From: Nannocystaceae bacterium
GTDB lineage: Bacteria; Myxococcota_A; Polyangia; Nannocystales; Nannocystaceae
Assembly (NCBI GenBank): GCA_019694555.1
Contig: JAIBBS010000005.1
Location: 1-64,000 of the forward strand
DNA: 64,000 nt
Direction: 5' to 3'
The notes beneath the pieces are model-generated. The model had not been told where the DNA came from, did no database searches, and worked only from the letters and a program-made list of their open reading frames with translations. Positions 8,842 through 62,844 of this stretch are shown in pieces. The translations under genes were made by a program, and so were the position numbers. Each line of letters opens with the position of its first letter. Positions within the stretch are counted from its first letter, which is position 1.

Positions 8842-9675
8842 TCACAGCATGCCCGCGCGCGCGGACTCGGGCAGATCCCCGAGCGCGTCCGCGAACTGAG
8901 CCTCGAGCATGCCTGCGAGCTTGGCCCGCTCGCCCTCGAGCACCTCGTCGGGCGCGCCGGCCTCGACCATCGTGTCGTACTCCCAGCGGAAGCGCTCGAT
9001 CTTCACGGTCGTCGCGGGCATGTACGACAGCAGCGGCCACACGTAGCGCTCGAGCGCGTGCTCGGGCGTCGGCGACAGCCGCCAGCGGTTGCCGAGGTTG
9101 AAGCGATCGGCGCCCTCGAGCGCCGCGGAAATCCGCAGCCCGACCACGCCGATCACCACCGTGCGGGCCTCGAGCAGACGCGACTGCACGCCGAAGGCGT
9201 CGAGACGCTCGAGTCGATCCTTGGCGGGGTAGCGCTCGTCGGAGCGACGGAACGCGAGCCACGACATGAACTCGTGGCTGTGCCGCCACACCAGGCGCTG
9301 GGCCTCGATCTGCGCGACCATCTTCGCGAGCCGGCTGCCGTGACGCGTGACCAGGCCGGTCGCGGTCTCGCTCATCTGCTCGCGCAGCTCGCGATCGAAC
9401 TGCGACAGCGACGCGCCGCTGTGGTGCTCGTCGAGCACCGACAGCGCCAACGCGACCGCGAGCCCGAGGTGGCCGGCGAGCTGGACCTCCAGCTGCACCA
9501 TCTGCTCGTACAGGCCCGGCATCACCAGCCGCGCCCGTTGCTCGTCGACGGCCTTGGCCTGGGCCAAAGCCTCGCGCTTGAGGTTGGTCAGGTTCTGCCG
9601 CAGCTCGAAGACCTCGGTATCGAGGTCTGGCGTGCGGACCTGGGCGAGGAACGACTCTCGCGGGCTCGACGACAT
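8842..9675 (-). CDS. Hypothetical helical cytoplasmic protein
   Basis: 277 residues, no signal peptide. The first 60 residues are strongly heptad-like (ELRQNLTNLKREALAQAK), and the middle is helical with aromatic patches (WRHSHEFMSWLAFRR). No catalytic motif or known family is visible. It is convergent with the HExxH gene (16 bp between stops) and divergent from the VIT/VWA gene. The ATG at 9675 follows a TACCCT box by 11 nt. Confidence 0.6.
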   Translation of the reverse strand: MSSSPRESFLAQVRTPDLDTEVFELRQNLTNLKREALAQAKAVDEQRARLVMPGLYEQMVQLEVQLAGHLGLAVALALSVLDEHHSGASLSQFDRELREQMSETATGLVTRHGSRLAKMVAQIEAQRLVWRHSHEFMSWLAFRRSDERYPAKDRLERLDAFGVQSRLLEARTVVIGVVGLRISAALEGADRFNLGNRWRLSPTPEHALERYVWPLLSYMPATTVKIERFRWEYDTMVEAGAPDEVLEGERAKLAGMLEAQFADALGDLPESARAGML

Positions 9676-9686
9676 CGAAGGCCGCC

Positions 9687-9692
9687 AGGGTA
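9687..9692 (-). promoter_or_regulatory. -10 box TACCCT
   Basis: Minus-strand TACCCT lies 11 nt before the ATG at 9675, with no Shine-Dalgarno sequence between them. Confidence 0.3.
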
Positions 9693-9854
9693 GCGCCTTT
9701 GGGGGCTGGCCCGGCGCGAAATCAGCCCCGGGCAGCAGATCCTAGGCCACACTCGCGCGTTGGGTCGCCGACGCGAACCCGCACCCTGGTGCGCCGCGGT
9801 CCAGACCCGCGGCCGCGGCCCGTGCGTTGTCGTCTCGTCGCCGCATCCGTTGCC

Positions 9855-9858
9855 GAGG
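9855..9858 (+). promoter_or_regulatory. Ribosome binding site GAGG
   Basis: GAGG ends 6 nt before the ATG at 9865. It fixes the start at 9865 rather than at 9760, the in-frame upstream alternative. Confidence 0.5.
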
Positions 9859-9864
9859 TCCGTC

Positions 9865-12800
9865 ATGCCCGTCGCCCGCCCCGCCGCCGCCTTTGGCCTC
9901 ACGCGCCGCCCTCGCGCCCGCACCCGCTTGGTGCGGCTCGCACTGCCGCTTCTGCTCGGTGGCTCGTCCTGCAACGAGGTCCCGACCGAGACCATCGCGC
10001 AGCAGGCCGGCGCGGCCGCGCCGGTGGCCGAGGCGGCCAAGCCCAACCGCGGTGCCGAGGTCACGGCGATCAGCGGACCGGGCGGGCTGCGATCGAGCGC
10101 GCTGGCGGAGGGCACGTTCTTGGGCAAGGGCGCCAAGCTCGACGCGGGCCAACGCACGTGGACGCCCAAGGGCACGCTCGCGGAGCTGCAGCTGCCGGGC
10201 GGCACGCGGCTGCGACTCAACGAGGACACCGAGGTCACCGTGCCTGCGCCGGGCGCGGAGCTCGTGCTCGGTCGCGGTGAGCTGGTCGCGCTGGTCGAGG
10301 GCCGCGCGAGCGAGCCGCTGGTGGTGCGCGCGGCCGACGACACCATCCGCGTCGAGGGCGGCGAGGTCCAGATCGTCCACGGCGGCGGCAAGCGTCAGAT
10401 CGCGGTGGTCCACGGCCGCGCGATCGTGGAGTCCAACGGCCAGCGCGTGGAGCTCGGCGCGGGCGAGCGCGTCAGCGCGCCGCTGGCCGAGCCCGAGCGC
10501 CGCGAGAAGCCCGAGCTGAGCCTGCGCCCGCTGACGGAGACCAGCTGGTCGCGCGCGTTCGAGCAGGCCGCCGATGCGATCGACGACGTGCCGCGTGGCG
10601 TCGGCAGCCTCACCGCGCGCGTGCCCGGCTCGCAGGCCGAGCAGGGGCAGAAGATCCGCCTCACCGAGCAGCGGGTCACGGTCAACATCACCGGCCGCCT
10701 GGCCCACACCGAGATCGAGCAGGCCTTCTTCAACGACCGCGCGGCGGTGCTCGAGGGCATCTATCGCTTCCCGCTGCCGGGCGACGCCTCGATCGCGGGC
10801 CTGCAGCTGTTGGTCGGCAATCGCTGGATGGAGGGCGAGATCGTCGAGAAGCAGCGCGCGCGGCAGATCTTCCAGCAGATCGTCGACGCGACCGTGCCGC
10901 GCGATCCGGCGCTGCTCGAGTGGGAGCGCGGCAACGTCTTCAAGCTGCGGCTGTTCCCGATCCCGGGCCGCGGCGAGCGGCGGGTCAAGCTCTCGTACAC
11001 ACAGGTGCTGCCGGTGGTGGGCGACAACGTCCGCTACCGCTTCCCGCTCGGGGGCACCGGCGCGACCGCGACCGCGATCGACGACTTCTCCTTCACCATC
11101 AACGTCGACAAGAGCGAGATCGACACCGCGCAGCTCGACCAGATCGACACGCCGATGCTCGCGCTCGATCGGCGCGACGACGGCACGCGCCTGCAGCTGT
11201 CGACCGAGCAGAAGAACTTCCAGCCGACCTACGACCTCGGCGTCGACCTGCCGGTGGCCGAGTCCGAGCGCACGGTCGCTGCGAGCACGCACCTCGACCG
11301 CGACGGTCAGGCCTACTTCATGCTGGCGCTCGATCCCCACATCGAGTTCGCGCGCGACGAGCGACCGGTGCACTTCGCGTTCGTGGTCGATCGCAGCCAC
11401 AGCACCACGCCCGAGCTGTGGACGGTCGCGCGCGGCATGGTCGAGGCCATGGCCGGCGGCATGGAGACCGACGACCGCTTCACCGTGTTGGCGTGCGACA
11501 CCGCGTGCGACGAGCTGCCCAGCGGCCTGCAGGCGCCGTCGGCCGCCGCCATCGACGCGACGCGGCGCTTCCTCGACGAGCAGGACATGGCCGGCGCGAG
11601 CGACGTCGGCGGCATGCTGATCGAGGCCGGTGACGCGCTCGCGCGCAGCGGTGGCGCCGACGCGCGCCGCGTCGTGGTCTACCTCGGCGACGGCGCGCCG
11701 AGCTCGGGCGAGCTCGCGCCGGACAAGCTCGCGACGCTGGTGCGCGACGCGATGCCGGACGTGCGCGTCGAGGCGCTGGCCCTGGGCGCGCGTTCGGATC
11801 TGGTGGCGATGGGTGCGGTGGTGCAGGCCACCGGCGGTGACGTGGTCCAGGTCGACGCGCGCGACGATCTGCGCGAGCTGGTCCGCGAGCTGCGGCTGCG
11901 CGCGCAGGTTCCGGTCGCGCGCAACGTCCGGCTGCAGACGCCCTCGGGCATGGTCGACGTGCGCCATTCCGAGGGCGCGGGCCTGCGGCCGGGCGACGAG
12001 GTCATCGTCACCGGCAAGCTCGCGCATCCCGTCAAGGGCGAGCTCACGCTCGTGGCCGACGGTCCCAACGGTCCGGTCGAGGCCCGCTTCCCGGTCGATC
12101 TCAACGTCAGCAAGACCGGTGCGCCGGCGCAGAACCAGCACCTGCCGCGGACGTGGGCGGCGATGGAGATCGCGCATCTGACCCGCACGCAGGGCTTCGA
12201 CGCCCACGATCGCATCGTCGCGCTGTCGAAGGACTACACCGTGCTGTCGCGCTTCACCGCGCTGCTGGTGCTCGAGAACGACGCGATGTACCGCGAGTTC
12301 AACGTCGTGCGCACCGCCAGCACCACCGACGCGTGGCGCGGCAAGATCGACGACAACAAGGAAGCCCGTCCGCCGCTGCCCGATGGCGCGGCGACCGAGG
12401 TCCCGGCGACGGCCCAGACGGCGCCCGGACTCGCAGCGCCGAGCCCCGAACCCGCGCCGCAGGAGGAGACCAGGATCACGGGTTCGCTCGCGACCAAGGG
12501 CGACGCGGACAAGGCCGGCGGCAAGGCCTTCGGACCCGCGCCGACCCTGGCCGAGAAGGACGTCGAGGCCGAGTTCGAGGCCAAGCTCGAGGAGCGCGAG
12601 CAGGGTGAGCTGCGCGCGCGCGGGTCCGACGACGACGGCGACGGCCTCGATCGCAGCGAGGACGCCCTCGCGGACGACGAAGGCGGTGGCGTCGCCGGCG
12701 GCGGTGGCGGTGCCAGCCCCTCGGCCGATCCCAAGCCCGCGGACGCACCCAAGACCAAGAAGGCGCCGGCGCCGGCCAAGCCCATGTCGACCCCGTCGAG

Positions 12801-13761
12801 CGGTGTCGGCGGCTGGGGTGGCGGCGAGGACGTGTGGGGCAACCGCGGTGGCATGTGGCGTCGCCCGCCGCCGCCGCGGCTCAAGATCGCGGCCGCGAGC
12901 GGTCCCTCGGGCAAGAACCTCGCGACCATCGCGTCGCTGCAGCGCGCGCTGTCGTTCGACGGCACCCGTCGCTCGGCCCACGGTGCGCTCGTGCGTGCGG
13001 CCATCCGCGTGGGGCACCCCGAGATGCTGAGCTTCGCGCGGGCGTGGGCCGACGTGGATCCCGATCACGCGCCGGCGCTGCTGTCGTTGGCCGACGCGCT
13101 CGCGGCCAGCGGTGATCCGTTGGCGTCGCGTGCCTACGCCAGCGCGCTCGAGGTCACGCCGTTCTCGCGCAGCCAGCACGACGCGATGGCGCGGGCCTTC
13201 GCGAGCAAGGGCGACCTGCGCCGCGCGTGCTCGCACCGCCGCGCGCTGGTCAGCATCGATCCTGCCGACGGCGATCTGCACGCCGCGCTGGTGGGCTGCC
13301 TGCAGCGTGCCGGTCGCACGCACGAGGCCACCGCCGCGCTGCACGACGGCCGCGTGCGGGCGAAGCTGCACCACGGCGCGCTCGCGCGCACCGAGGCGGA
13401 GCTGGGCCTCGCCGCCGCCGGCACCGGCGTCGCGCTGCGCGGGCAACTCAAGGCGACGTTGACCTGGGCCGGCGAGGACGATCTCGACATCGCGATCGTC
13501 GATGCCGGCGGCCACCGCCTGGCCGCGACGCACCCGTCCAAGCTGACCGTGCGCGAGGCCGGCGGTCTCGAGCAGCTCGCGATGGCGAAGGTGAAGAAGT
13601 CGGTGTTCGTCGAGGTCACGCGCACCGGCGTGGCCGCCGACGAGCGGCGGGGACCGGTGCGGGCCACGCTCGAGCTGCGCACGCCCAGCGGCAACAAGAC
13701 CTTCCCGGTCGTGATCGACCGCGGCAGCGTCCGCGTGGCGCGGGTGTTCTGGTCGACCTGA
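9865..13761 (+). CDS. FecR-VIT-VWA repeat-containing surface protein
   Basis: About 1298 residues. The N-terminus has an Arg-rich region, a hydrophobic run and GGSSC, a likely lipobox. Residues about 58-205 resemble FecR (beta-rich, ending VVHGRAIVESNGQRVELGAGERV-like). A VIT domain covers about 262-385 and a VWA domain about 499-645, with the metal site DRSHS near 508 in place of the usual DxSGS. Then come a Pro/Ala/Gly-rich disordered region (830-1000), a TPR-like stretch (about 1065-1180) and a C-terminal beta domain. VIT-VWA proteins are related to inter-alpha-trypsin inhibitor heavy chains and usually bind proteins at the cell surface. It is divergent from the 8842-9675 gene. Confidence 0.85.
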   Translation: MPVARPAAAFGLTRRPRARTRLVRLALPLLLGGSSCNEVPTETIAQQAGAAAPVAEAAKPNRGAEVTAISGPGGLRSSALAEGTFLGKGAKLDAGQRTWTPKGTLAELQLPGGTRLRLNEDTEVTVPAPGAELVLGRGELVALVEGRASEPLVVRAADDTIRVEGGEVQIVHGGGKRQIAVVHGRAIVESNGQRVELGAGERVSAPLAEPERREKPELSLRPLTETSWSRAFEQAADAIDDVPRGVGSLTARVPGSQAEQGQKIRLTEQRVTVNITGRLAHTEIEQAFFNDRAAVLEGIYRFPLPGDASIAGLQLLVGNRWMEGEIVEKQRARQIFQQIVDATVPRDPALLEWERGNVFKLRLFPIPGRGERRVKLSYTQVLPVVGDNVRYRFPLGGTGATATAIDDFSFTINVDKSEIDTAQLDQIDTPMLALDRRDDGTRLQLSTEQKNFQPTYDLGVDLPVAESERTVAASTHLDRDGQAYFMLALDPHIEFARDERPVHFAFVVDRSHSTTPELWTVARGMVEAMAGGMETDDRFTVLACDTACDELPSGLQAPSAAAIDATRRFLDEQDMAGASDVGGMLIEAGDALARSGGADARRVVVYLGDGAPSSGELAPDKLATLVRDAMPDVRVEALALGARSDLVAMGAVVQATGGDVVQVDARDDLRELVRELRLRAQVPVARNVRLQTPSGMVDVRHSEGAGLRPGDEVIVTGKLAHPVKGELTLVADGPNGPVEARFPVDLNVSKTGAPAQNQHLPRTWAAMEIAHLTRTQGFDAHDRIVALSKDYTVLSRFTALLVLENDAMYREFNVVRTASTTDAWRGKIDDNKEARPPLPDGAATEVPATAQTAPGLAAPSPEPAPQEETRITGSLATKGDADKAGGKAFGPAPTLAEKDVEAEFEAKLEEREQGELRARGSDDDGDGLDRSEDALADDEGGGVAGGGGGASPSADPKPADAPKTKKAPAPAKPMSTPSSGVGGWGGGEDVWGNRGGMWRRPPPPRLKIAAASGPSGKNLATIASLQRALSFDGTRRSAHGALVRAAIRVGHPEMLSFARAWADVDPDHAPALLSLADALAASGDPLASRAYASALEVTPFSRSQHDAMARAFASKGDLRRACSHRRALVSIDPADGDLHAALVGCLQRAGRTHEATAALHDGRVRAKLHHGALARTEAELGLAAAGTGVALRGQLKATLTWAGEDDLDIAIVDAGGHRLAATHPSKLTVREAGGLEQLAMAKVKKSVFVEVTRTGVAADERRGPVRATLELRTPSGNKTFPVVIDRGSVRVARVFWST

Positions 13762-16724: not shown

Positions 16725-19700
16725 TCAGGTGTCCGACGCGTTGGCGTCGCGCAGCAGATCCTCGAGGTCGGCCAGGTCGATGCGCCGCAGCTCGCCCAGC
16801 TGTGCGAGTGCGTCGAGGTCCATGCGGTCGGCGTTGCCGATGATCGACAGCACCAGCGGTGCTTCGCCCAGCGCGCTCTCGTAGCGCTCGAGGTCGGCGT
16901 AGGACAGCCCCGGCAGCGCGAGCCACTGCGCGAGCCGGGGGTCGGTGCCCGGCTCGGGCCAGAAACGCACCGCCTCCGGCACCGCGCGCGTGGGCGTGCG
17001 CCAGGCACGGAACGAGACCTCGAGCCGGCGCCGCGCCGCATCGAACTCGGCCGCAGGCACGCGCATGCGCACCAGCGCGATCGCGGCCTCGGCCGCGGAC
17101 AGCACGTCCTGCTCGCGCGCGGCGTAGGTCGCCTGCGTCGCGAGCGGGTGCCGTGCGGCCCACCACGGCGTCGTCGCCCAGCGCGGTTCGAGGTGCGGCG
17201 GTCCGTTCTGCAAGCCGTCGATGACCTGATCGACGTGCAGCTGCGCCGCGAGCTGTAGGCGCGGCTCGAGCTCGGGCCACGGGACCGCCGCGCGCACCTC
17301 GACGCCGTCGCGCGCGGGGTCGTGCAGCACGAACACCAGGTCGCGTCGCAACGCTCGCGTGCGCGGCACCGGGATGCTCGTCGACGCGGTGCCCGAGCTC
17401 GGAGGCACCAGCTCGCGCACGCGCGCGGCATCCGGGCCGATATATAGTAGATCGGCCGCGTGCCGCCCCAGCCGTCGCAGCGAGGCGGGCAGGGCCGTGG
17501 CACCGCGCTCGCGCAGCGTCGCGTCGTCGGGCATGTGCGCGTCGATGCCGGCGTCGCCGCGCAGTGCCCACGCGTGGAACGACGGCTCGCGCCACGCATC
17601 GCTGAGACGGCGTGCCGCCCGGGTCTGCAGCGCGCGCGCGAGGTACTCCTCGAGGTCCTGTTCGCTGGGCATGCCGCGCTCGAGCCAGTCGAACACCAGC
17701 GGTGCGTCGCGGACGAAGCGATCGGCAGGGGCCACCACGTCGATCCACACGAAGTCGTTCGCGCAGTAGGTGCCGAAATCGATGCCGGGAATCGCGACCG
17801 CGCGCATGCGGGCGCGGACCGCATCGCAGACGAACGGATCCTGGTCGACGCCCACGGGATAGACCCACGACGCCATCGCGAGCGGACCGGGCGCGTCGGT
17901 CGTGATCACGCGGCGGTTGCCGCGTTGCGACTCCTGGTAGTGGCTGCCGGCGAGCAGGAAGCGCGGCTCGGGCGGAGTCACCGGTGCGTCGACGATGGCG
18001 CGCGCGAACGCGGAGCGCCGGCCGTAGCGCGTCGGCAAGCGCGTGCCGGGCAGGTTCGGCATCGGCACGTGCCAGGTCTCGCCGGGGTGCTTGTAGACCA
18101 CCGCGCGCGAGCGATCGACCAGACGCCGCGCGGTCGCGACCATCGCGGCGCGGCTGGGCTTGACCGTCAGTGCGTTCGCGACGACCTGCCACGAGCGCCG
18201 GTCGATGAAGGAGCCCGCGATGGTGCTCGCCAGTGCACCCGACGAGCGCGCCCAGCCCAGCTGCTCGAGCTCCGCGCGCGCGAGCGCGGGCGCCCAGGCC
18301 TCGTCGGGCAGAGCGTCGCCGGCGATCGATTCCAGCGCGGCCATGGTCGCGGCCTCGGTGTCGGCGAGCGAGCGCTCGCCCAACGCGGTCGCGCGCACGT
18401 CGAGCGTGCGGTAGGGCGTGACGCTCCACGAGACCTCGGCGGTGTCGCGGCGCAGGCCCGAGGCGAGGCCGTCGTGATCGCCCAGCGCCGACGCCAGCGT
18501 CACGAAGTCGCCGTACTCGGGTGACTGCGTCGGCGGCAGGGGCCACGACATGAACACCGCCGGCGCACCGCCGTCCTCGATCTCGCGCCGGACCACGCCC
18601 TCGGGCAGCGGCGCGTCGACCGGCGGCTGCGCCGGGATCGGCGCGGGCGCCCAGTCGCCGAAGTGCTTCTCGCACAGCGGCAGCGCCTGCTCGGGCGTGA
18701 GGTCGCCGACCAGCACGATCGCGAGGTTGTTGGGGCGATAAAACGAGTCGTGGAACCGCATCGCGTCGTCGAGCGGGAAGCCCAGCAGGTACTGCGTCGC
18801 GGTCTCGTAGTCCTCGCGCAGGCCGGTCGCGGCCGCGAGCTCGCGCTGCAGCAGCTGCCACGCGCGATCGTTCGACGTGGTCGACGCGTACAGGTCCAGC
18901 TGCGACTGCACCACCGCGAAGGTGTCGCGGAACGCCGGGTGCCGCACGGTCTCGGCCAATATCGCCAGCCACGCGTCGAGACGGTGCGGCGGCAGCTCGA
19001 GCGTGAAGGTGGTGCCGCTGCCCGAGCGCGAGCTCGACAAGCCTTCGCCCGCGATCGCGGTCGCGGCGTCGTCGAGATCGGTGGGTGCGAGAAATGGCGC
19101 CGCGGCGTGTTCGGTCGCGCTCGCGGCCGCGATCATCGCGTCGCGGGCGGCATCGTCGGGTGCCTGCGGCAGCGCGCGCAACAACGCGTGCTCGAGGGCC
19201 AACGACGGCCGCGCCATCGCGGGGTCGACTGCACCGAGCCGCTCGCCGCCGCGGTACAGCGACATCATCACGAGGTAGCCCAGGCCCGGACCGTAGCCGC
19301 GCTCCTGATCGCTGCCGGCACGGACCGCGAGCGTGACGGCGACCTCGGGTTCGAGCGGACGGTGTGCGACGTAGACGGTCAAACCGTTGCGCAGGCGGTG
19401 CACCGTCACGCCGGTGGGATCGCCCGGCAGCGGCGACGCCAGCGGCGGCGGCAGGTCGGCGGTGTGCGCGACGATCTCGCGCCAGGGATCGATCGGCGTC
19501 GGCTCCGGCAGCGGTGCGCTCGGGGCCTCGGGCACGACCGGCGTCGGTGCGGGTGGCCGCGCGAGCTGTACGATCGCCGCAGCCGCGGCCGCGCCGAGCC
19601 CGGCGTAGACCAGGCCGCGACGCGAGCCGGGGGCCCGCGCGCGACGCAGCGCCGCGAGCAGCTCGTCCATCGACGCGTAGCGATCCTCGGGTGCACGCGA

Positions 19701-20669
19701 CAGCCCGCGCAGCAGGATCCGTCGCACCGAGCGCGGCACGCCCAGCGGGCCCGCGTCGGCCTCGACGCGCAGGCCGGTGACGATCGCTCGCACCAGCTCG
19801 GTGTAGGTCGAGCCGGCGAAGGGCCGGCGATCGTAGAGCATCTCGAACAACGTCACGCAGTACGCGAACTGATCCGTGCGCGTGTCGGGCTCGGACTTCG
19901 CGAGCTGCTCCGGTGCCATGTACGCCGGCGTGCCGAGCACGGTGCCGGCACCGGTGAGATCGAGCAGCCGCGCTCGACCGCCGCTGGGCGGTGTCGCGAG
20001 CAGCGGGTCGGGCCGGTCGCCCGAGAGCGCCTCGCCGCCGCCGCTGGTGCCCGGTGCGCGCGCGAGACCGAAGTCGACCACGCGCGCGCGGCCCTGCTCG
20101 TCGATGAGCACGTTGTCGGGTTTGAAGTCGCGGTGGACCACGCCGTGCGCGTGCGCGGCCGCGAGGCCCTCGCCCGCGCCGATGCACGCGTCGACGATCT
20201 CGCGCCAGCCCTTGCCCTTGCAGTAGCGCCGCAGGGTCTCGCCGCGGATCAGCTCCATCGCCATGAACACGTGGCGGCCGCTGTGGCCCACCTCGTACAC
20301 GTGCACGATGTTGGGATGCGACAGGCGGGCGATGGCCTGGGCCTCGCGCAGCAGTCGCTCGCGGCGCGACAGATCCGGCGCGAGATCGGCACGCAGCAGC
20401 TTGATCGCGACGTCGCGGTCCAGCTCGTCGTCGTGCGCGAGGTAGACCACGCCCATGCCGCCGCGGCCGATGCGTTCGACGATGCGGAAGCGACCCAGGG
20501 TCTCGGGCGCCGTGTCGCCGCCCGACTCCTGCGCGCGCGCGAGGGCGTCGCGTGCCTCGGTCGCGAGCGCCGCGCCCTCGAGCTGCGCGGTGTCGGCCGC
20601 GTCGTCGCCCTCGAGCGCGACGGTGTCGGCCAGGACCACGGTGGGCTCGGGTCGCGACTCGTCGCTCAT
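16725..20669 (-). CDS. Ser/Thr kinase fused to a zinc-site-less M16 peptidase-like region
   Basis: 1314 residues. The kinase domain (about 61-345) is intact: GRGGMG loop 68-73, K90, HRD 179-181, DFG 199-201, GTPAYMAPEQ. A TM helix (352-370) and a Pro-rich linker follow. From about 421 the protein resembles an M16 (pitrilysin/insulinase) peptidase: VHRLRNGLTVYV, later FYRPNNLAIVLVGD, then a second half of similar kind. The zinc motif HxxEH aligns to Y465-LV-M468-M469, so all three residues are changed and proteolysis is not expected. The external M16-like part may bind peptides and signal inward through the kinase; this is inference. The start overlaps the stop of the upstream VWA lipoprotein gene (ATGA), so the two are co-translated. 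Confidence 0.9.
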   Translation of the reverse strand: MSDESRPEPTVVLADTVALEGDDAADTAQLEGAALATEARDALARAQESGGDTAPETLGRFRIVERIGRGGMGVVYLAHDDELDRDVAIKLLRADLAPDLSRRERLLREAQAIARLSHPNIVHVYEVGHSGRHVFMAMELIRGETLRRYCKGKGWREIVDACIGAGEGLAAAHAHGVVHRDFKPDNVLIDEQGRARVVDFGLARAPGTSGGGEALSGDRPDPLLATPPSGGRARLLDLTGAGTVLGTPAYMAPEQLAKSEPDTRTDQFAYCVTLFEMLYDRRPFAGSTYTELVRAIVTGLRVEADAGPLGVPRSVRRILLRGLSRAPEDRYASMDELLAALRRARAPGSRRGLVYAGLGAAAAAAIVQLARPPAPTPVVPEAPSAPLPEPTPIDPWREIVAHTADLPPPLASPLPGDPTGVTVHRLRNGLTVYVAHRPLEPEVAVTLAVRAGSDQERGYGPGLGYLVMMSLYRGGERLGAVDPAMARPSLALEHALLRALPQAPDDAARDAMIAAASATEHAAAPFLAPTDLDDAATAIAGEGLSSSRSGSGTTFTLELPPHRLDAWLAILAETVRHPAFRDTFAVVQSQLDLYASTTSNDRAWQLLQRELAAATGLREDYETATQYLLGFPLDDAMRFHDSFYRPNNLAIVLVGDLTPEQALPLCEKHFGDWAPAPIPAQPPVDAPLPEGVVRREIEDGGAPAVFMSWPLPPTQSPEYGDFVTLASALGDHDGLASGLRRDTAEVSWSVTPYRTLDVRATALGERSLADTEAATMAALESIAGDALPDEAWAPALARAELEQLGWARSSGALASTIAGSFIDRRSWQVVANALTVKPSRAAMVATARRLVDRSRAVVYKHPGETWHVPMPNLPGTRLPTRYGRRSAFARAIVDAPVTPPEPRFLLAGSHYQESQRGNRRVITTDAPGPLAMASWVYPVGVDQDPFVCDAVRARMRAVAIPGIDFGTYCANDFVWIDVVAPADRFVRDAPLVFDWLERGMPSEQDLEEYLARALQTRAARRLSDAWREPSFHAWALRGDAGIDAHMPDDATLRERGATALPASLRRLGRHAADLLYIGPDAARVRELVPPSSGTASTSIPVPRTRALRRDLVFVLHDPARDGVEVRAAVPWPELEPRLQLAAQLHVDQVIDGLQNGPPHLEPRWATTPWWAARHPLATQATYAAREQDVLSAAEAAIALVRMRVPAAEFDAARRRLEVSFRAWRTPTRAVPEAVRFWPEPGTDPRLAQWLALPGLSYADLERYESALGEAPLVLSIIGNADRMDLDALAQLGELRRIDLADLEDLLRDANASDT

Positions 20670-22339
20670 CCGCTGGCTCCCATGTCGCCGCCGGGCGGAT
20701 CATCGCAGGTCTCGCCGACCGGGCGCGTCAGCTCGCACTGCACCTCGACCGTGGTGCCGGCGGGTTCGAGCGCGCCCTCGGGGCGCTCGACCACGAGCTC
20801 GAGGTTGGCGCCCCGCGTGACGCACTGCCGTGACATGTCGTCGCCGGCGTTGCTGGTGCTGCCGTCGACGTCGAGCAGCGCGCGGTGACACAGCTCGAGG
20901 CTGGTGCCGGGGAAGCTCCAGCCGTCGGCGGTGAGCTCGCAGCGCGGCACGATGCGCTCGTCGCCGTCGGCGCTGCGCTCGATCAGCCGGCAGTCGGGCT
21001 GCAGCCCGGGTTCGTCGGCGTCGTGGTCGGCGACGCAGCCGGGCACGCACGTGCGCGCGCTCAGCCGCGCGAGGCCGTCGACGATCTGCTGCAACGCGAT
21101 GGTGTAGTCGGGCGAGCAGATCGACGACAGGTTGGGCGCGTCGGTCGCGAACTCGGCCGCGAACTCCGCCAGCCGCACCGGCGGGATCCCGGGCGGGCTG
21201 GTGGGGGTCTCGGTGCCCACGCCGCAGCCGGGACCGATGCCGTACTCGAGGTTGAAGTCGGGCAACGCCGAGTCGGCGAACAGCATCTGCTGGGTCTGGG
21301 GATAGTCGAGCGGCACGCCACCGATCACGCCGACGAGCACCTGCGAGGCGCCGCCGCGCTCGGCCTTGGCCTGGGCCACGTCGCGCACCGCGTCGACGTA
21401 GCGCGACACCGGGTACAGCACCGCCTCGCTGGGATCGGCGACCGGCATGCCGTCCCAGCCCATGTCCTGCGCGTGGCACTCGTCGTAGACGCCGGGCCCG
21501 CCGGTGCACACGGTGCCCGCGCGCCAACACGCACCCGAGCTGGGCGAGTCTGCGGACGGATCGGTCCACAGCGCGCGGCCGCGGTCGTTCATCAGGCCGT
21601 CGATGTTGTCGAACGGCGCCGAGCAATCGGTCTCGTCGGTGACGAAGACGATCGCCAGCAACGCCTCGTCGCGCAGGAAGCCGGCCGAGTTGCCCTCCTG
21701 CTCGAGCACCGCGCGCATCGATTCCAGCGGCGCCTCGAAGCCGGCGCCGTTGATGCCCTGGGGCCCGGCACAGCGCATCGCGTCCGCGATCGAGATCCCG
21801 TCGGCGAGGTTGCTGCCGCCGGCGGTCTTCTCGATCCACGGCCGACCCGAGAGCTCGGCGCCGTCGGCCACGGTCGCGACGGTGTCGAAGCCGCACGAGG
21901 CCAGGCAGCCGGCCTGGGTCTCGTCGATGACGAGGCCGTCGAAGTCGTTGAACACGAACTCCTCGAGCCGCTCGCGACAGCTGCTCACGCGCAGGGTCCC
22001 GTACGCGTCCGTCGTGGTCAGGCCGATGCGGTAGCTGGCACCGAAGCGCTGCTGCTCGAGCACGTCGACGAACGCGGGGAAGTTGGACGCCAGCGTGCCC
22101 TGCTCCACGCCCATCGAGCCGGAGTTGTCGATGACGAACAGGATGTCGACCGCGCGCTGCAGCTTCGCGACCGAGGTGCAGGCATTGTCGGCGCAGGGGT
22201 CGGGCACGATCTCCCAGAACGGCCCGCGGCCGCAGCCGACCACGAGCAGCGCCGATGCGACCGCAGCGCGCCGGGCCACGGCGGGCAGCGGCGCACGGCT
22301 GCACCGCTGCCATCGCGCGCGTCGCCCGGATCTGCGCAC
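20666..22339 (-). CDS. VWA-domain lipoprotein
   Basis: About 557 residues. The signal peptide is Arg-rich with a hydrophobic core ending ALLVVGC. A VWA domain starts near residue 60 with VDILFVIDNSGSMG, an intact DxSGS metal site, and continues through VFVTDETDCS. Many cysteines (CxxxCGFD, CxPGC) suggest disulphides. The protein ends GGDMGASG, and its stop overlaps the start of the kinase-M16 gene, which suggests the two act together, for example as surface receptor and transducer. I chose GTG 22339 because a TGC-TACCGT box lies 7 nt upstream and the signal peptide is complete; longer in-frame versions lack support. Confidence 0.8.
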   Translation of the reverse strand: MRRSGRRARWQRCSRAPLPAVARRAAVASALLVVGCGRGPFWEIVPDPCADNACTSVAKLQRAVDILFVIDNSGSMGVEQGTLASNFPAFVDVLEQQRFGASYRIGLTTTDAYGTLRVSSCRERLEEFVFNDFDGLVIDETQAGCLASCGFDTVATVADGAELSGRPWIEKTAGGSNLADGISIADAMRCAGPQGINGAGFEAPLESMRAVLEQEGNSAGFLRDEALLAIVFVTDETDCSAPFDNIDGLMNDRGRALWTDPSADSPSSGACWRAGTVCTGGPGVYDECHAQDMGWDGMPVADPSEAVLYPVSRYVDAVRDVAQAKAERGGASQVLVGVIGGVPLDYPQTQQMLFADSALPDFNLEYGIGPGCGVGTETPTSPPGIPPVRLAEFAAEFATDAPNLSSICSPDYTIALQQIVDGLARLSARTCVPGCVADHDADEPGLQPDCRLIERSADGDERIVPRCELTADGWSFPGTSLELCHRALLDVDGSTSNAGDDMSRQCVTRGANLELVVERPEGALEPAGTTVEVQCELTRPVGETCDDPPGGDMGASG

Positions 22340-22346
22340 TGTGACC

Positions 22347-22355
22347 ACGGTAGCA
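22347..22355 (-). promoter_or_regulatory. Extended -10 box TGC-TACCGT
   Basis: The element ends 7 nt before the GTG at 22339. It is the probable promoter of the VWA lipoprotein / kinase-M16 operon. Confidence 0.45.
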
Positions 22356-22527
22356 CGGCTGGTGCGGCCACCGCTGTCGACGCGCGGGGCTGGATCGAGG
22401 TCGGCGGGCCCTCGGGGTTTGCCGAACTTTCGCGCCGGCAGCCGAGCCTGGGGTAGAACACGCAGACGTTCGGTGTCTCGCGCGTCCCCGCCGGCGGGAT
22501 CGGCGGTACGCCACGGCGTGCGTGCCC

Positions 22528-23946
22528 ATGTTCGCGCCATTCGTCGCGCTGCTGCTGTTCGCGCCGGCCGGGTCATCGCCGGCGAGGGATCCGGTGCACC
22601 CGGCGACGCGCGCGTACGTGGGTCCGCGCGAGGTCGCGCTGCCGCCCGGTGCGGACCCCGGCGTGGCGGTGGATCCGACGCCGAGCTCGGCGCCGGACCC
22701 GGGTGCGAGCACGACGCCGTCGACCCCGCCGACCGCCGACGCGCATCACGAGGGCGAGCGGCCCAGCGCACCGGCGATGACACGCAGCGCCGACGAGACC
22801 CTGGTCCGTCGCGTCACGCGTCCGGGTGACAGCGACGTGCGACGCACGTGGGTGGTCGGTGGCTTCGTCGACGCCAGCTACGTCATCAACTCCAACTCGC
22901 CCGACAATCACATCAACCGCGGCATGGGCACTGCGCCGCGCAGCGGCGAATTCGGCGTACCGCTGGCGGTCGCGTACATCCGCCACGACGCCGATCGCCG
23001 CGAGCCGTGGTTCCTCGAGCTCGCGCTGCAGGTCGGCCCCGCTGCGACCTCGCTGCTCGCCGCCGACCCGCAGCCGGGCGGCGACGCCAGTCGCCTCGCC
23101 GGCGTGAACGTGTGGCAGCACCTCGGTCGTGCCAACGCGGGCATCCGCATCCCGCGGGCGCGCACCGAGATCGGCGGCGGCGTGTTCGGCACGCCGATCA
23201 GCTACTGGAGCTTCTGGGCCAAGGACAACTGGACCTACTCCACGCCGTGGCACCTCAACGCAGTGCCGTACGTGCTCATGGGCCTGCGCGTGCTGCAGCC
23301 GATCGGACGCAAGTGGTTGTTGCAGGCGTGGGTGCACAACGGCTGGGCGACCTACGCGGACATCAACAAGGCGCCGAGCTACCTCGGCGGCGCCATCGTC
23401 GAGCCGGTCGCGGGGCTGCACCTGGGCCAGTTCTTCCACTTCGGTCCCGAGGACACCGACATCCGCGCGCGCGCGTGGCGAATGCTCAGCGACACCTGGA
23501 TGGCATTCGAGCGCGGGCGCTTCGGTCTGGTCGCGATCGCCGACGTGATGCGCGAGCGCGTCACCGCGCAGCCTGGTGAGCCGGTGGCGATGTACCTCGC
23601 CGGCGCGATCTCGCCGCGCGTGCGCGTGCTCGAGCGTCGCGGTGGTCGCATCGCCTGGTGGCTGGCCGCACGCGGCGAGGCGTTCTGGGATCGCCACGGC
23701 CGCATCTACGGCGTCGATCAGCTGATGGGCTCCGCGGTCGCCAGCAGCGACCTGCGCCTGTTCGAGTTCGTGCAGCTGCGCGTGGAGTATCGCTTCGACG
23801 CCTCGACCGCGCCGCAGGGCTTCTTCTATCGCGGCGCCGCGGTCCACGACAGCGACGGTGGGCTGGCGCAGCAGCAACACGCGGTCTACATCGCGCTCAT
23901 CGGCACCTTCGAGCACTGGTTCGGTCGCCGCGCGCGATCGAAGTGA
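22528..23946 (+). CDS. Outer-membrane beta-barrel porin (Bbp2/OmpL-like)
   Basis: About 472 residues. After a signal peptide (MFAPFVALLLFAPAGSS) and a Pro-rich linker of about 80 residues comes a barrel with alternating amphipathic strands: GGFVDASYVINSNSPDNH near 112, then LAVAYIRHD, PWFLELALQVGP, SYWSFWAKDNWTYSTPWHLN, and a last strand ending in IALIGTFEHWFG. The early 'GFVDASY..NSN.PDN' pattern and repeated Trp/Tyr girdles fit the beta-barrel porin 2 group. The substrate is unknown. GTG 22522 would add two residues. Confidence 0.75.
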   Translation: MFAPFVALLLFAPAGSSPARDPVHPATRAYVGPREVALPPGADPGVAVDPTPSSAPDPGASTTPSTPPTADAHHEGERPSAPAMTRSADETLVRRVTRPGDSDVRRTWVVGGFVDASYVINSNSPDNHINRGMGTAPRSGEFGVPLAVAYIRHDADRREPWFLELALQVGPAATSLLAADPQPGGDASRLAGVNVWQHLGRANAGIRIPRARTEIGGGVFGTPISYWSFWAKDNWTYSTPWHLNAVPYVLMGLRVLQPIGRKWLLQAWVHNGWATYADINKAPSYLGGAIVEPVAGLHLGQFFHFGPEDTDIRARAWRMLSDTWMAFERGRFGLVAIADVMRERVTAQPGEPVAMYLAGAISPRVRVLERRGGRIAWWLAARGEAFWDRHGRIYGVDQLMGSAVASSDLRLFEFVQLRVEYRFDASTAPQGFFYRGAAVHDSDGGLAQQQHAVYIALIGTFEHWFGRRARSK

Positions 23947-47448: not shown

Positions 47449-48246
47449 CTATCGGCCAGTGAACGCGGGCGCGCGCTTGCCCAAGATGGCCTCGACCGCC
47501 TCGCGGTGGTCGGCGGTGTTCTGCACCATCCCCTGATAGCTCGCGGCGAGCTCGAGCGCGGTCTCGAGATCGCAGTCCCAGCTGCGATACGCCGCACGCT
47601 TGGTCAGGCGCACCGCGAGCGGCGCGTTGTGGGCGATCGCGCCGGCGAGCTGACGCGCGGCATCCATCACCGCGCCGGCTTCCACCACGCGGTGCACGAG
47701 CCCGATCGCGAGCGCCTCGTGGGCATCGATCACACGCCCGGTGAGCATGAGCTCGAGCGCGCGCGCGAAGCCGATCGCCCGCGCGAGCACGTACGCGCCA
47801 CCGTCGCCGGGGACCAGGCCCACCTTCACGAAGGTCGAGCCCAGCTGCGCGCCCTCGGCTGCGACTCGCAGGTCGCACATGCAGGCGAGGTCGAGGCCCG
47901 CGCCGATGGCCGCGCCGTTGATCGCCGCGACGATGGGCTTGTCGCACAGCGAGATCCGCCGCGGCACCCGCTGGATGCCTTCGATGTACTGCCGCCGCAG
48001 CGCGACCGGATCGCCGGCGAACATGCCGGTGGCGTCGCGCATCTGCTTGAGGTCGCCGCCGGCGTGGAACGCCTGACCTGCGCCGGTCAGGATGATCGCG
48101 CGCACCTGCTCGTCGCGCTCGGCCGCGTCGAGTGCGGCGACCAGGCTGTCGACCATCGCCGACGAGTAGGCGTTGCGCGCCGCCGGTCGATCGAGCGTGA
48201 TGATCGCGAGCGGACCCTCGGTCTGGTACTGCAGATCGGTGTACAT
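47449..48246 (-). CDS. Enoyl-CoA hydratase/isomerase family protein
   Basis: 265 residues, crotonase fold. AIITLDRPAARNAYSS, AFHAGGDLKQM (oxyanion-hole loop) and AINGAAIGAGLDLACMCDLRVA, followed by FVKVGLVPGDGG, are the standard motifs. The canonical first glutamate is an aspartate (GLD) and the second is the D of PGDGG, so strict hydratase activity is uncertain. It acts on acyl-CoA in the cytoplasm. No neighbouring beta-oxidation gene is present. A TGC-TACTGC box lies 9 nt upstream. Confidence 0.9.
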   Translation of the reverse strand: MYTDLQYQTEGPLAIITLDRPAARNAYSSAMVDSLVAALDAAERDEQVRAIILTGAGQAFHAGGDLKQMRDATGMFAGDPVALRRQYIEGIQRVPRRISLCDKPIVAAINGAAIGAGLDLACMCDLRVAAEGAQLGSTFVKVGLVPGDGGAYVLARAIGFARALELMLTGRVIDAHEALAIGLVHRVVEAGAVMDAARQLAGAIAHNAPLAVRLTKRAAYRSWDCDLETALELAASYQGMVQNTADHREAVEAILGKRAPAFTGR

Positions 48247-49948: not shown

Positions 49949-53068
<3,120 letters not shown>

Positions 53069-53147: not shown

Positions 53148-55919
53148 GTGTCGCGCGCTGATACGATCGACGTCGCAGTCATCGTGGACGAGTCCGAGGA
53201 CGCCATCGATCTCGACAGCGCGCGGACGCAGACCCTGGGCATCTCGTCCACGGGCGCGGTCGCGCTGTCGATCGCGCTCGAGCCCGGCACCCGCATCGGT
53301 CGCTACCTCGTGCGCATGCGCCTGGGCGCCGGCGGCATGGGCGAGGTCTACGAGGCCTACGACCCCGAGCTCGATCGCGTGCTCGCGATCAAGCTGGTGC
53401 ACCCGCGCGCCGATCGGCACACCGAGGAGCAGCGACTGCTGGTGGCCGAGGCCCAGGCGCTCGCACAGCTGTCGCATCCCAACGTCGTGCAGGTCTACGA
53501 CGCCGGCACCCACGGCGGACGCGTCTTCGTCGCGATGGAGCTGGTCGAGGGGCGCACGCTGCAGACCTGGCTGCGCGCGCACGGGCCGGACGCAGGGCGA
53601 CGCGCGAGCTGGCAGCAGCTGGTCGACCTGTTCCTCGACGCCGGTCGTGGTCTCGCCGCAGCGCACGCGGCGGGGATCGTCCACGGCGACGTCAAGCCCA
53701 GCAACGTCATGGTCGGCAGCGACGGTCGTGCGCGCGTGTTCGACTTCGGCCTCGCGCGCACGAAGGCGCAGACGTCGGGTTCGATCGACGAGGTCCGCGA
53801 TCTGGGCCGCAGCAACTCCGAGGTGCGCGGCACGCCGGGCTTCATGGCGCCCGAGCAGTTCCGTGGCGGCGAGCTGCTGCCGGCGACCGATCAGTTCGCG
53901 TTCTGCGTGTCGCTGTACGTGGCGCTGTTCGGTCAGCCGCCCTTTGCCGGCGAGAGCCTGGCCGAGCTGCGGCGCAACGTCACCGCGGGCGCGGTGCGTG
54001 TGCCGCGGGGGCACGACGTGCCGCCGGCGCTGCGGCGCGCGGTGCTGCGAGGCCTGCGGGTCGATCCGGCGACGCGGCACGAGTCGATGGACGCGTTGCT
54101 CGCGACGCTGGCGCGGCTGCGCCACGGTCGTTGGCGGTGGTTGATCGCGGCCGCGGCCGTCGCCGGCGGCGTCGCGGTCACGGCCGCATCGCTGCGCGGA
54201 ACCGCCGAGGATCGCTGCGGCAACGGTCAGGCGCGCGCGGACGCAGTGTGGAACGACGAACGTCGCGGCGACATCGAGGGCGCGCTGTCGCTGCTGGGCA
54301 AGCGCTACGCCGACGATGGCGCGCGCGCGGTCACGACCGCGTTCGACGCCTGGGTGCCTCGCTGGGTCGGGACCTACCGTGAGGTCTGCGAGGCCGCGCT
54401 GGCCAACCCCGATCCCAAGGTCGATCGCGCGATGGGCTGCCTGACCGACGCGCTGCTGCAGCTCGACGCGACCGCGGCGCTGCTCGCCCGCGCCGATGCA
54501 GCGCTCGCGCGCAAGGCCGCGGTCATGGCCCAGGGCCTGCCCGAGCCCGCGCGCTGCCCCGAGCTCGCGGCCAAGGACGTCGGTCGCGGTGCGCTCGACG
54601 ATCAGGATCCCGAGGTCATGCGCATGCGCGCCGCAATCGCAGCCGGACGCGCGCGGACCCAGGCCGCACGGTTCGACGACGCGATCTCGATGCTGAGCGC
54701 GGTGGTCGAGCAGGCCCAGGCGCAGCAACAGCCGTGGGTCGCGGTCGAGGCCAAGGTGCTGCTGGCCGAGGCCTACGATCTGGGCAGTCGGCGCGACGAC
54801 GCGATGCGGCTGTATCGCGAGACCATCGCCGAGGCCGCCGCCTGTGGCCACGGGCGCGCCGAGGGCCAGGCGTGGACGCAGCTGGTCCGCGTCGCGGCCA
54901 ACGCCTCGGACTTCGAGGAGTCGGATCGTGCGCGCAAGCAGGCCGAGATCTGGCTCGAGCGGCTCGACGATCGCCTCAACATGGGCGTCGATCTGGGGCT
55001 CAACGTCGGCATCGCGCAGATGGGCAAGGGTGACTACGTCGGCGCGTGCGAGACGTTCGAGCGCACGCTCGACGCCTTGGTCGCGGCCGGGCGCGGCGAC
55101 GACTCCCGCGTGGCCGCGCTCAGCAACAATCTCGGTGCGGCCTGGGGGATGCGCGGTGATCACCGGCGCGCGCGCGAGTACTTCGAGCGCTCGGCCGAGC
55201 TCAAGCGCGCGGTGGTCGGACCCGATCACCCCGACGTCGCGACGGCGATGAACAACGTCGGCGTCGCGCTGTCGGCCATCGGTGAGGACGAACAGGCCCG
55301 CGATCGTCTCCGTGAGGTGCTGGCGCTGCGTCGGCGCGCGCTCGATCCCGATCACCCCGAGATCGCAGCGTCGTGCCACAACCTCGGCGCGGCCGAAGCC
55401 GCGCTGGGCAACCACGACGTCGCGGTCGCGCTGTACCTCGAGGGCCTCGCGATCCGCGAGCGTCGGCTCGGCGCCGATCATCCCAGCACCGCGGTCACGC
55501 GCAACAACCTCGCGGATGCGTACGTCGAGATGGGCCGCACCGACGACGCGCTCGCGCAGGCCGAACAGTCGCTCGCGCACCTGCAGCGCCGGCTGGGCGA
55601 GCAGCACCCGCACACCGCGTTCCCGCTGCACACCATGGGCGAGTGCCATCGCTTGCGCGGGGACTACGAATCCGCGATCGGGCTGCTGCGCCGCGCCGAG
55701 ACCGTGCGCACCGGCACCACCGCCGACCCGTTCGAGCTGGGGCGGACGCGCCTGGCGCTGGCGCTCGCGCTGCGCGATGGCGGTCATCTGCGCGACGAGG
55801 TTCGCCGCATGGCCGAGGCCGCGATCGTCGACTTCGGCACCACGCCCCGTGGCCTGCGCGAGGCTGCCAAGGCCCGCGCGTTGCTCGACGGGCTGCCGGC
55901 CGACGACGGCGATCAATGA
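53148..55919 (+). CDS. Ser/Thr protein kinase with TM helix and TPR domain
   Basis: 923 residues. The kinase domain (about 51-325) has GAGGMG, K82, catalytic loop HGDVKPSN (H179, G180, D181), DFG 199-201 and GTPGFMAPEQ. Arg of HRD is Gly, so it may be independent of activation-loop phosphorylation or weakly active. A TM helix is at 331-348. The outer part is TPR repeats with DHPD/DHPEI signatures of the KLC type. GTG 53148 is the first start; a TGA-TACGAT box at 53159 lies inside the coding part and would favour GTG 53184. The stop overlaps that of the convergent kinase gene by 7 nt. Confidence 0.9.
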   Translation: MSRADTIDVAVIVDESEDAIDLDSARTQTLGISSTGAVALSIALEPGTRIGRYLVRMRLGAGGMGEVYEAYDPELDRVLAIKLVHPRADRHTEEQRLLVAEAQALAQLSHPNVVQVYDAGTHGGRVFVAMELVEGRTLQTWLRAHGPDAGRRASWQQLVDLFLDAGRGLAAAHAAGIVHGDVKPSNVMVGSDGRARVFDFGLARTKAQTSGSIDEVRDLGRSNSEVRGTPGFMAPEQFRGGELLPATDQFAFCVSLYVALFGQPPFAGESLAELRRNVTAGAVRVPRGHDVPPALRRAVLRGLRVDPATRHESMDALLATLARLRHGRWRWLIAAAAVAGGVAVTAASLRGTAEDRCGNGQARADAVWNDERRGDIEGALSLLGKRYADDGARAVTTAFDAWVPRWVGTYREVCEAALANPDPKVDRAMGCLTDALLQLDATAALLARADAALARKAAVMAQGLPEPARCPELAAKDVGRGALDDQDPEVMRMRAAIAAGRARTQAARFDDAISMLSAVVEQAQAQQQPWVAVEAKVLLAEAYDLGSRRDDAMRLYRETIAEAAACGHGRAEGQAWTQLVRVAANASDFEESDRARKQAEIWLERLDDRLNMGVDLGLNVGIAQMGKGDYVGACETFERTLDALVAAGRGDDSRVAALSNNLGAAWGMRGDHRRAREYFERSAELKRAVVGPDHPDVATAMNNVGVALSAIGEDEQARDRLREVLALRRRALDPDHPEIAASCHNLGAAEAALGNHDVAVALYLEGLAIRERRLGADHPSTAVTRNNLADAYVEMGRTDDALAQAEQSLAHLQRRLGEQHPHTAFPLHTMGECHRLRGDYESAIGLLRRAETVRTGTTADPFELGRTRLALALALRDGGHLRDEVRRMAEAAIVDFGTTPRGLREAAKARALLDGLPADDGDQ
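53159..53167 (+). promoter_or_regulatory. Extended -10 box TGA-TACGAT
   Basis: The element lies 16 nt before GTG 53184 and inside the 53148 reading frame. TTGAAC at 53141 is 15 bp upstream, slightly short as a -35 partner. If used, translation begins at 53184. Confidence 0.3.
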
Positions 55920-58822: not shown

Positions 58823-58902
58823 CGGCGCAGCAGCATGCCACAGCGTCGCGCGGGCGAACGCGGCGCCGCTCGGTGACGCCGCACGGCCATCGCGCGCGCG
58901 CG

Positions 58903-60815
58903 TCAGCGCGACAGCGTCGCGAGCGCGAGCGCGACCTGGCGTTCTTGCTCCTGGGCCGGGTCGTGCACGCCCAGGCCCATCCGTGCCGTGCGCTCGAGCA
59001 ACGACTTGGCCTCGAGCAGGCGATGGAACAGCTCGGCGCGGCGATCCTCGAGCGCACGCAGACGGTCGAGGCCCTCGAGGATCGGCGTGCGTGTGGCCGG
59101 CGGCTCTCCACGTGCCTCCGAGGCCGCGAGCGCCCGCACCATCGCGCCCTCGTCGAGCTCGGCGAGCTCGCGGCTGGTGTGGCGCAGCTCGGCGACGTGA
59201 TGCTCGACCGCATCGACGATCGGCACCATCGGCGCGGTCAGCAGCTCGAACTCCTTGCTCTGCGGTCCCAGCAGCGTCGCGCGGTGGTCGACCAGCCGCT
59301 GCACCAACAGCGCGAGCTCGGCGATCACACCGCGGACGTCGCTGGGCGGATCGTCGGCGAGCAGCGCCGCGAGTCGGGCGACCAGCGGGTCCGAGGCGGG
59401 CAGGGCCGCGGCTGCCGGCCGCAGGCGGTAGTTGGGCGCGGTGCGCTGGCTGCCGATCCGTTCGCTCAACCACACCAAGAGGCCCACGAACATCGGGATG
59501 CCGGGGCCGAGGATCCACCACGGCGAGAAGCCGATCGCGCCCACGGCGGTCGCGAGCACCGCGAGGCCGAGCACGAGACCGCCGGTCGCGGCCCAGGCCC
59601 GCCGCGACGCGTCCGGTCGCACGATGCGGGTGTGCACGCCGTGCTCCGCGGCCAGCCGTTGCAGCGCCTGCGCGGTGTCCTCGGTGAGGTTGTCGTACAG
59701 CCGCGCGGGCAGGCGGATGCGCTGGGCCCGTTCCTGCTCCGAGTACATGTGCACCGAGCCGATGAGGAACTCGGGGCGGCGCATCGGCTGCGAGGAGATG
59801 TCGCCGAGCATGCCCTGCAGCCACCGCAGCGGCGCGGCATCTTCGTTGAGCTTGAGCAGGTCGAGCGCGAAGCCGTCGCGGCCCTCGCCGGCGTGCTCGA
59901 AGCGAACGGCCACGCGCCCGCACGAGGTGCACAGGCGCTGACCGATGCGCAGGCGTGTGCCGCAGTGCTGACAGTTGGCGGTCGCGCTGTCGTCCCACGG
60001 ACTCGCGCCGCCGCGCAGCACCCACGCGATCACCGACATGCTGCCGGGCCGCTCGCTGGGATCGACCGCGAGGCAGCGGCGCATCAGCTCGTCGAGCGCG
60101 GCGGGGGCGTCGGCGCGCACCTGCGAGATCGGCGGTAGCCCTCGATGCTCGGCCAGCAGCGCCGGCCCGTCGCCGAAGGGCAACGCGCCGGTCAGCGCCT
60201 GCCACAGCATCATGCCCACGCTCCACACGTCCGAGCGCTGGTCGACCGCGGTGCGCACCAGCTGCTCGGGCGCGGCGTAGGTCGAGCCGCGCAGCAGCAG
60301 GCTCGAGGCGGTGTGGCTCGACAGCACGTCGACGCGCGCCAGCCCGATGTCGACCAACACGATCCCGGTCGCGGTGACCAGCAGCTGCTCGGGTCGGAGG
60401 TCGCGCAGCACCGCGCCCGCGTGGTGGACCTCGTGCACCGCGTCCGCGATCGCGGCGAACAACGCCGCGGCCTCGTCGAGCGGCAGCGGTGCGCGCTGCA
60501 TGATGCTCGCCAGCGACTCGCCCGCGGGATCGAGTCGCACGCGCCACGGCGCCACCGCCGAGGGCTCGCGGGGATCGGGCTCGGGGCCGATCGCCAGCGT
60601 CGGCGCCACGCTGCCCGCGGCCAGGCCGCGGACGCGCTCGATGTCGCGGACGTAGCGGCGGCGGATCGACTCGTCGCGCGCGAGGTCGGGCGCGAGCTGA
60701 CCCACCAGCGCGGCGCGACCATCGGCCAGGCGGACGCGCCACCGCGTCTCCGTGCCGACGTCGATCGCGTCCCCGATCACGGTGTGGGGCAGCGGCAGGA
60801 ACTCGAGCGCACCGC

Positions 60816-60819
<4 letters not shown>
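58903..60819 (-). CDS. Likely pseudokinase with zinc ribbon and membrane segment
   Basis: 638 residues. The kinase-like region (about 25-290) retains D140 in LRDLRPEQ but the HRD histidine is L138; DFG is DIG (157-159), and the VAIK lysine position is in ALVGQL, with Q41. The Gly loop is absent. A C-x2-C...C-x2-C zinc ribbon (CQHCG...CTSCG) lies at about 305-325, and two TM helices at about 440-475. The C-terminal part is coiled-coil-like. GTG 60819 overlaps the stop of the upstream kinase by 4 nt, so the two are translated together, like an active/inactive kinase pair. Confidence 0.82.
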
Positions 60820-62705
<1,886 letters not shown>

Positions 62706-62844
62706 CCTTCTCCCGCGCCCACGGAGGGCGGCGCAACCGCGGGGCTCCGGTGTTCGGCGCCCGAGGGCGCGCACGCGGCCGCGATGACTGTACCTCAGGG
62801 ACGCAGGCCGGGCACGGCGGTTGCTGTCGGTCCGCCGCGCGGCG

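What the first reader, a model, noticed from the sequence alone, without database searches (positions are those of the whole stretch)
16725..20669. Ser/Thr kinase fused to a complete M16 peptidase-like region with all three zinc ligands replaced
Seen: intact HRD and DFG kinase, one TM helix, then about 890 residues of M16 type. The HxxEH motif aligns to Y465-LV-M468-M469 with flanking GL and G positions kept. Known: M16 enzymes use this motif for zinc and catalysis, and inactive subunits exist in M16B pairs. Inferred: the peptidase-like part binds peptides outside the cell and signals through the kinase. A VWA lipoprotein co-translated upstream may be its partner.
Basis: partly seen in the sequence, partly recalled or inferred. 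Interest (0 to 1): 0.78.

Follow-up and report, generated by a model that had tools for sequence, protein, structure and literature searches.

The report
Receptor-like kinases with a dead protease
A small group of environmental bacteria carries a family of membrane kinases whose outer part is a whole protein-cutting enzyme of the insulin-degrading-enzyme type that has lost every residue it needs to cut, so it most likely senses something instead of cutting it.

Summary
ORF 16725-20669 (-) encodes an intact Ser/Thr kinase, one TM helix and a 920-residue M16 region. The predicted structure of that region (pLDDT 93, pTM 0.93) matches PqqL and insulin-degrading enzyme along its whole length. HxxEH aligns to Y465-L-V-M468-M469; the distal zinc-ligand Glu (here L593) and the R/Y substrate pair of the second half are also lost.

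I found 13 such fusions in six species of three genera of one family. None keeps HxxEH; two keep only its first His. All 55 unfused relatives with the region readable keep HxxEH, the distal Glu and R/Y, including three in this genome. Most unfused relatives have an export or lipoprotein leader. The fusions form one branch (support 100). The dead part is under purifying selection.

The VWA-partner idea fails: congeners keep VWA near prfC without this kinase, and the kinase elsewhere without VWA.

Best reading: receptor-type kinases with a periplasmic pseudo-M16 sensor. The ligand is unknown; peptide binding is possible, but loss of the R/Y pair argues against the canonical mode. I found no published description.

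The parts
16725..20669 (-). kinase-TM-pseudoM16 fusion gene, 1314 aa
   Evidence: orthologues and paralogues
19680..20486 (-). Hanks-type Ser/Thr kinase domain, residues 62-330, catalytic motifs intact
   Evidence: Pkinase 5.9e-41; VAIK 87-90, HRD 179, DFG 199, APE
19560..19616 (-). single TM helix, residues 352-370
   Evidence: hydropathy peak 1.72 preceded by Arg-rich stretch; same place in the other fusions
16728..19487 (-). M16 two-half (four-domain) region, residues 395-1314
   Evidence: Pfam M16_C, profile search, AlphaFold2 pLDDT 93.2 and pTM 0.93, Foldseek
19260..19286 (-). former HxxEH motif, GLGYLVMMS (residues 462-470)
   Evidence: alignment to GLAHYLEHM of unfused relatives
18882..18920 (-). 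former distal zinc-ligand helix, FAVVQSQLDLYAS (residues 584-596; ligand column is L593)
   Evidence: alignment to ELEAVYEEK of unfused relatives
17157..17198 (-). segment in place of the R...GLAY (R/Y pair) motif, residues 1158-1171
   Evidence: alignment
20666..22783 (-). VWA lipoprotein ORF upstream (true start probably near 22237); 4-base overlap with the kinase gene; not a conserved neighbour, so not counted as part of the system

Best explanation
It is a transmembrane Hanks-type Ser/Thr kinase whose periplasmic sensor is a complete M16 clamshell that has stopped being a peptidase. Shown by computation: an intact kinase, one TM helix, the whole M16 fold, loss of both His ligands, the catalytic Glu, the distal Glu and the R/Y pair; the same architecture with the same losses in paralogues and orthologues of three genera; one common branch; purifying selection. 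Inferred: an exported, membrane-anchored M16 protease was joined to a kinase, the kinase's TM helix taking the place of the export leader, and catalysis was lost while the chamber was kept. A ligand (a peptide, a misprocessed periplasmic protein or another partner) would be held by the clamshell, and its closure or pairing would switch the cytoplasmic kinase. The fusion has multiplied (four copies in this genome), as expected of sensors for different ligands.
For: Intact kinase motifs and TM in the fusions, with the HRD Arg changed to Gly only in genus g4. M16 fold over the full length. 13 of 13 fusions lack HxxEH, 55 of 55 unfused relatives keep it. Fusions are one side of a branch with SH-aLRT 100. 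dN/dS 0.24 in the M16 part of the closest orthologue pair, against 0.11 in the kinase and 0.14 in the prfC control. Unfused relatives mostly have a lipobox (28 of 54) or another hydrophobic leader (19 of 54).
Against: No ligand, no expression and no activity data. The R/Y pair is lost, so binding in the classical substrate mode is doubtful. The residues in the former active site vary between paralogues (GLGYLVMMS, GLAALTLAA, GVPGLLIAA), so no new conserved binding motif is visible there. One paralogue pair has dN/dS of 0.78-0.86 in the M16 part, so some copies evolve fast.
Confidence: 0.6

Rival explanations
1. The dead M16 part is not a free-standing ligand receptor but a partner or regulator of an active M16 lipoprotein encoded elsewhere in the genome, as inactive M16B subunits or alpha-MPP are; the kinase reports the state of that protease.
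For: The same genome encodes several exported M16 proteins with intact motifs, and dead M16 chains that complete an active partner are well known (PMC12731061, PMC11266112).
Against: The fusion already holds both halves of the clamshell in one chain, so it does not need a second half. No active M16 gene is a conserved neighbour of the fusions. Genera without fusions keep the active relatives.
Confidence: 0.2
2. The M16 part is a passive or decaying remnant and the kinase is regulated by other means.
For: It evolves faster than the kinase, and the former active-site residues differ among paralogues. One copy, G001:C234, changes frame inside the M16 part.
Against: Full-length open frames of 900 or more residues persist in several paralogues and three genera; dN/dS is 0.24-0.58 in orthologue pairs; the model is confident over the whole length.
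Confidence: 0.12
3. The M16 part is still an enzyme that uses a different metal site or chemistry.
For: Migrated active sites exist among supposed pseudoenzymes in general (general knowledge; PMC10211241 abstract).
Against: No new conserved set of ligand-type residues replaces the motif across the fusions; the changed positions are mostly hydrophobic or small.
Confidence: 0.04
4. The fusion is an assembly or annotation artefact.
For: These are draft, fragmented genomes.
Against: The same architecture occurs on separate contigs of six genomes in three genera.
Confidence: 0.01

Closest known systems
Long single-chain M16 peptidases: E. coli PqqL (6ofs), Porphyromonas gingivalis zinc protease (9ldy), insulin-degrading enzyme
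   Same: Same four-domain two-half fold over about 1000 alignment columns
   Different: They keep HxxEH, the distal Glu and R/Y and have no kinase; this protein has lost all of these and carries a kinase and a TM helix
Unfused exported M16 lipoproteins of the same family of bacteria (for example G000:C293, C35 and C210)
   Same: 19-26% identity over the whole M16 part, including the insert between HxxEH and NAFTS
   Different: Intact catalytic residues, export leader instead of kinase plus TM
Inactive M16 chains: alpha-MPP, core proteins of complex III, M16B inactive subunits
   Same: M16 fold without HxxEH
   Different: Single half (about 450-500 residues) that completes a separate partner; no membrane kinase
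Transmembrane receptor Ser/Thr kinases of bacteria (PASTA kinases PrkC/PknB, Xanthomonas PknS)
   Same: Cytoplasmic Hanks kinase, one TM helix, extracytoplasmic C-terminal part
   Different: No PASTA repeats; the sensor is a 920-residue pseudopeptidase. NCBIfam's PASTA-kinase model matches only at the kinase, 248.5 bits against a cut-off of 450
Catalytically dead metalloprotease receptors in animals (ADAM11/22/23)
   Same: A dead metalloprotease-family protein used as a membrane receptor (PMC11266112)
   Different: Unrelated protease family, no kinase in the chain

Membership tests
M16 peptidase (active enzyme) | M16 four-domain clamshell fold | tested here: met
   AlphaFold2 and Foldseek, profile search
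M16 peptidase (active enzyme) | HxxEH motif (two zinc ligands and the catalytic Glu) | tested here: not met
   Y465, M468, M469
M16 peptidase (active enzyme) | distal Glu, third zinc ligand | tested here: not met
   column residue L593; kept in all unfused relatives
M16 peptidase (active enzyme) | R/Y pair in the second half | tested here: not met
   segment 1158-1171 lacks R...GLAY
M16 peptidase (active enzyme) | zinc-dependent proteolysis | not testable with these tools
   needs protein
Transmembrane Hanks-type Ser/Thr kinase | kinase domain with catalytic Lys, HRD, DFG, APE | tested here: met
Transmembrane Hanks-type Ser/Thr kinase | single TM helix between kinase and extracytoplasmic part | tested here: met
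   hydropathy only; topology itself is inferred
Transmembrane Hanks-type Ser/Thr kinase | ligand-regulated kinase activity | not testable with these tools
   needs protein
PASTA-type receptor kinase | PASTA repeats; score above the NCBIfam cut-off | tested here: not met
   248.5 against 450 bits; no PASTA in Pfam
Inactive subunit of an M16B pair | about 450-500 residue single half with an adjacent active partner gene | tested here: not met
   both halves in one chain; no M16 neighbour

The most novel reading that the evidence does not exclude
A complete, catalytically dead M16 clamshell has become the ligand-sensing ectodomain of a multiplying receptor-kinase family: peptides or proteins trapped in the former digestion chamber change its closure and so switch the kinase, that is, a digestive enzyme has become a peptide receptor.
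Probability: 0.35. Interest if true: 0.75.

Novelty: new variant of a known kind. Interest (0 to 1): 0.58.

Why it matters
What most bacterial receptor Ser/Thr kinases sense is unknown. A sensor made from a peptide-trapping chamber gives a concrete first guess, and active relatives in the same cell give a ready comparison. It would show a whole M16 protease turned into a receptor rather than into half of an enzyme, with partly degraded relatives still visible (the genus-g4 proteins keep the first His; the genus-g2 protein keeps the Arg of the R/Y pair).

Tried and rejected
VWA partner: rejected, the adjacency is not conserved. Conserved operon around the fusions: none found. Fusions outside the family: none among 318 genomes of the class, but only the two best candidates per genome were scored there; the 379-genome phylum sample at E<=1e-80 would miss divergent fusions, and other phyla were touched only by a two-pattern scan of genome contigs, so absence elsewhere is not shown. 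Kinase-side tree: consistent with one origin, but support is only 46 and one TPR-type kinase (L027/L163) falls near the fusions. The phmmer search was run on a wrong reading frame and is void; replace it. Model coordinates could not be read, so chamber conservation and the possible C948-C969 disulphide were not tested. Paper searches found no kinase-M16 fusion; the library lacks most subscription journals.

Full report
OBSERVATION. The ORF at 16725-20669 (-) is real: 1314 codons with a coding-type codon-position GC profile and an ATGA overlap with the upstream VWA ORF. Pfam finds Pkinase at 62-330 (5.9e-41) and Peptidase_M16_C at 633-790 (7.9e-19); PF00675 is just below its cut-off and matches only profile positions 61-131, that is, without the zinc motif. 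The kinase carries GRGGMGVVY, VAIK, HRDFKPDN, DFG and APE, followed by one hydrophobic helix at 352-370 with Arg residues just before it.

M16 IDENTITY. A profile from eight kinase-fused M16 parts hits the solved Sphingomonas M16 subunit 3amj_C at 5.3e-22; with unfused relatives added it also hits PqqL, MPP and IDE. AlphaFold2 models of residues 395-1314 reach pLDDT 86 (8 sequences) and 93.2 with pTM 0.93 (60 sequences). Foldseek aligns them over about 1000 columns with PqqL (5.7e-33), the Porphyromonas zinc protease 9ldy and IDE (about 1e-30). TM-scores of about 0.6 with large rmsd would fit a clamshell whose halves stand at another angle (inference).

LOSS OF CATALYSIS. Against unfused relatives in the same genome (GLAHYLEHM), the window has GLGYLVMMS: Y465, M468 and M469 for H, E and H. 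In M16 the two His and a distal Glu bind zinc, the motif Glu is the base, and the R/Y pair of the second half helps bind substrate (PMC12731061). The distal-Glu column (ELEAVYEEK in relatives) is L593, and the R...GLAY segment is gone.

THE FAMILY. Thirteen kinase-M16 fusions were found: G000 at C217 (the window), C317, C92 and C156; G001 at C155, C387, C310 and C234; G003 at C665 and C479 (C13 is probably the other part of the latter); G005 C67; G008 C259; G007 C109. They lie in three genera (codes g1, g2, g4) of one family; congener G002 showed none. A search of 318 genomes of the class found none outside that family, within its limits. Of the 13, none keeps HxxEH; the two of genus g4 keep the first His (GLAHLALVA). 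All 55 unfused relatives with the region readable keep HxxEH, the distal Glu and R/Y. These counts are not independent: on the tree the fusions are one side of a single branch (SH-aLRT 100, length 1.3), so one fusion followed by loss would explain most of it. The kinase tree agrees, but weakly.

LOCATION AND ORIGIN. Of 54 unfused relatives checked, 28 have a lipobox and 19 more a hydrophobic leader (simple pattern tests on stop-to-stop frames). Homology between the fusions and the nearest unfused clade begins just after that leader. The simplest reading is that the kinase's TM helix took the place of the export anchor, leaving the M16 part in the periplasm (inference).

SELECTION. Nei-Gojobori dN/dS for L039 against L011 is 0.11 in the kinase and 0.24 in the M16 part; other orthologue-type pairs give 0.31-0.58 in the M16 part; one paralogue pair gives 0.78-0.86; the prfC control gives 0.14. 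The method is crude at this GC content. The M16 part is constrained, but less than the kinase.

NEIGHBOURS. In G003:C110 the orthologue of the VWA gene ends about 15 bases from prfC (RF3) with no kinase between. In G001:C150 the VWA orthologue and prfC lie on one contig with other genes, again without this kinase. The kinase orthologues are on other contigs with other neighbours. The genome holds about 15 VWA relatives. The adjacency in the window is therefore local and is no evidence of partnership.

INTERPRETATION. The best-supported reading is a receptor-type kinase with a pseudo-M16 sensor. Shown: anatomy, fold, loss of catalytic residues, a family, constraint. Inferred: topology, ligand sensing, control of the kinase. 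Peptide binding is a fair guess from the chamber, but loss of the R/Y pair argues against the classical mode. The main rival is a role as partner of an active M16 lipoprotein.

LITERATURE AND ORGANISM. Paper searches found dead M16 chains (alpha-MPP, core proteins, M16B) and dead metalloprotease receptors in animals, but no kinase-M16 fusion. A myxobacterial, Nannocystaceae-like placement is my own inference and was not tested.

Noticed in passing
window 53148-55919 (+), 55913-60742 (-), 60816-62774 (-): Three further Ser/Thr kinase genes lie in the same window, downstream of a secA-like gene (49949-53068). More than 150 kinase matches were scored in this genome.
   Followed up: partly
L153:1386-1964 (+), beside the genus-g4 fusion at L153:1985-6013 (-): An ECF-type sigma factor gene lies convergent to the fusion gene; a possible kinase target, not seen beside the other fusions.
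   Followed up: partly
L153 and L158 kinase domains: The two genus-g4 fusions have HGDFKPEN in place of HRDFKPDN, so their kinases lack the Arg of HRD while keeping the catalytic Asp.
   Followed up: no
L045:6727-10837 (G001:C234): One fusion gene changes reading frame inside the M16 part (about residue 1138 of the open frame); sequencing error or a broken copy.
   Followed up: no
G000:C293 (L049) and G001:C340 (L114, L033): An unfused M16 lipoprotein with intact motifs lies a few kilobases from an orthologous Ser/Thr kinase gene in two species.
   Followed up: partly
L055:7567-9213 and 9191-10807 (G000:C26): A typical M16B-type pair: one chain with HxxEH, the next without.
   Followed up: no
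window 9760-13761 (+): A 1333-aa ORF that reads like a FecR/VIT/VWA-type protein; not run through the family libraries.
   Followed up: no
window 48053-48142 (+): ARAGORN reports a tRNA with an undefined four-base anticodon; probably a false positive.
   Followed up: no
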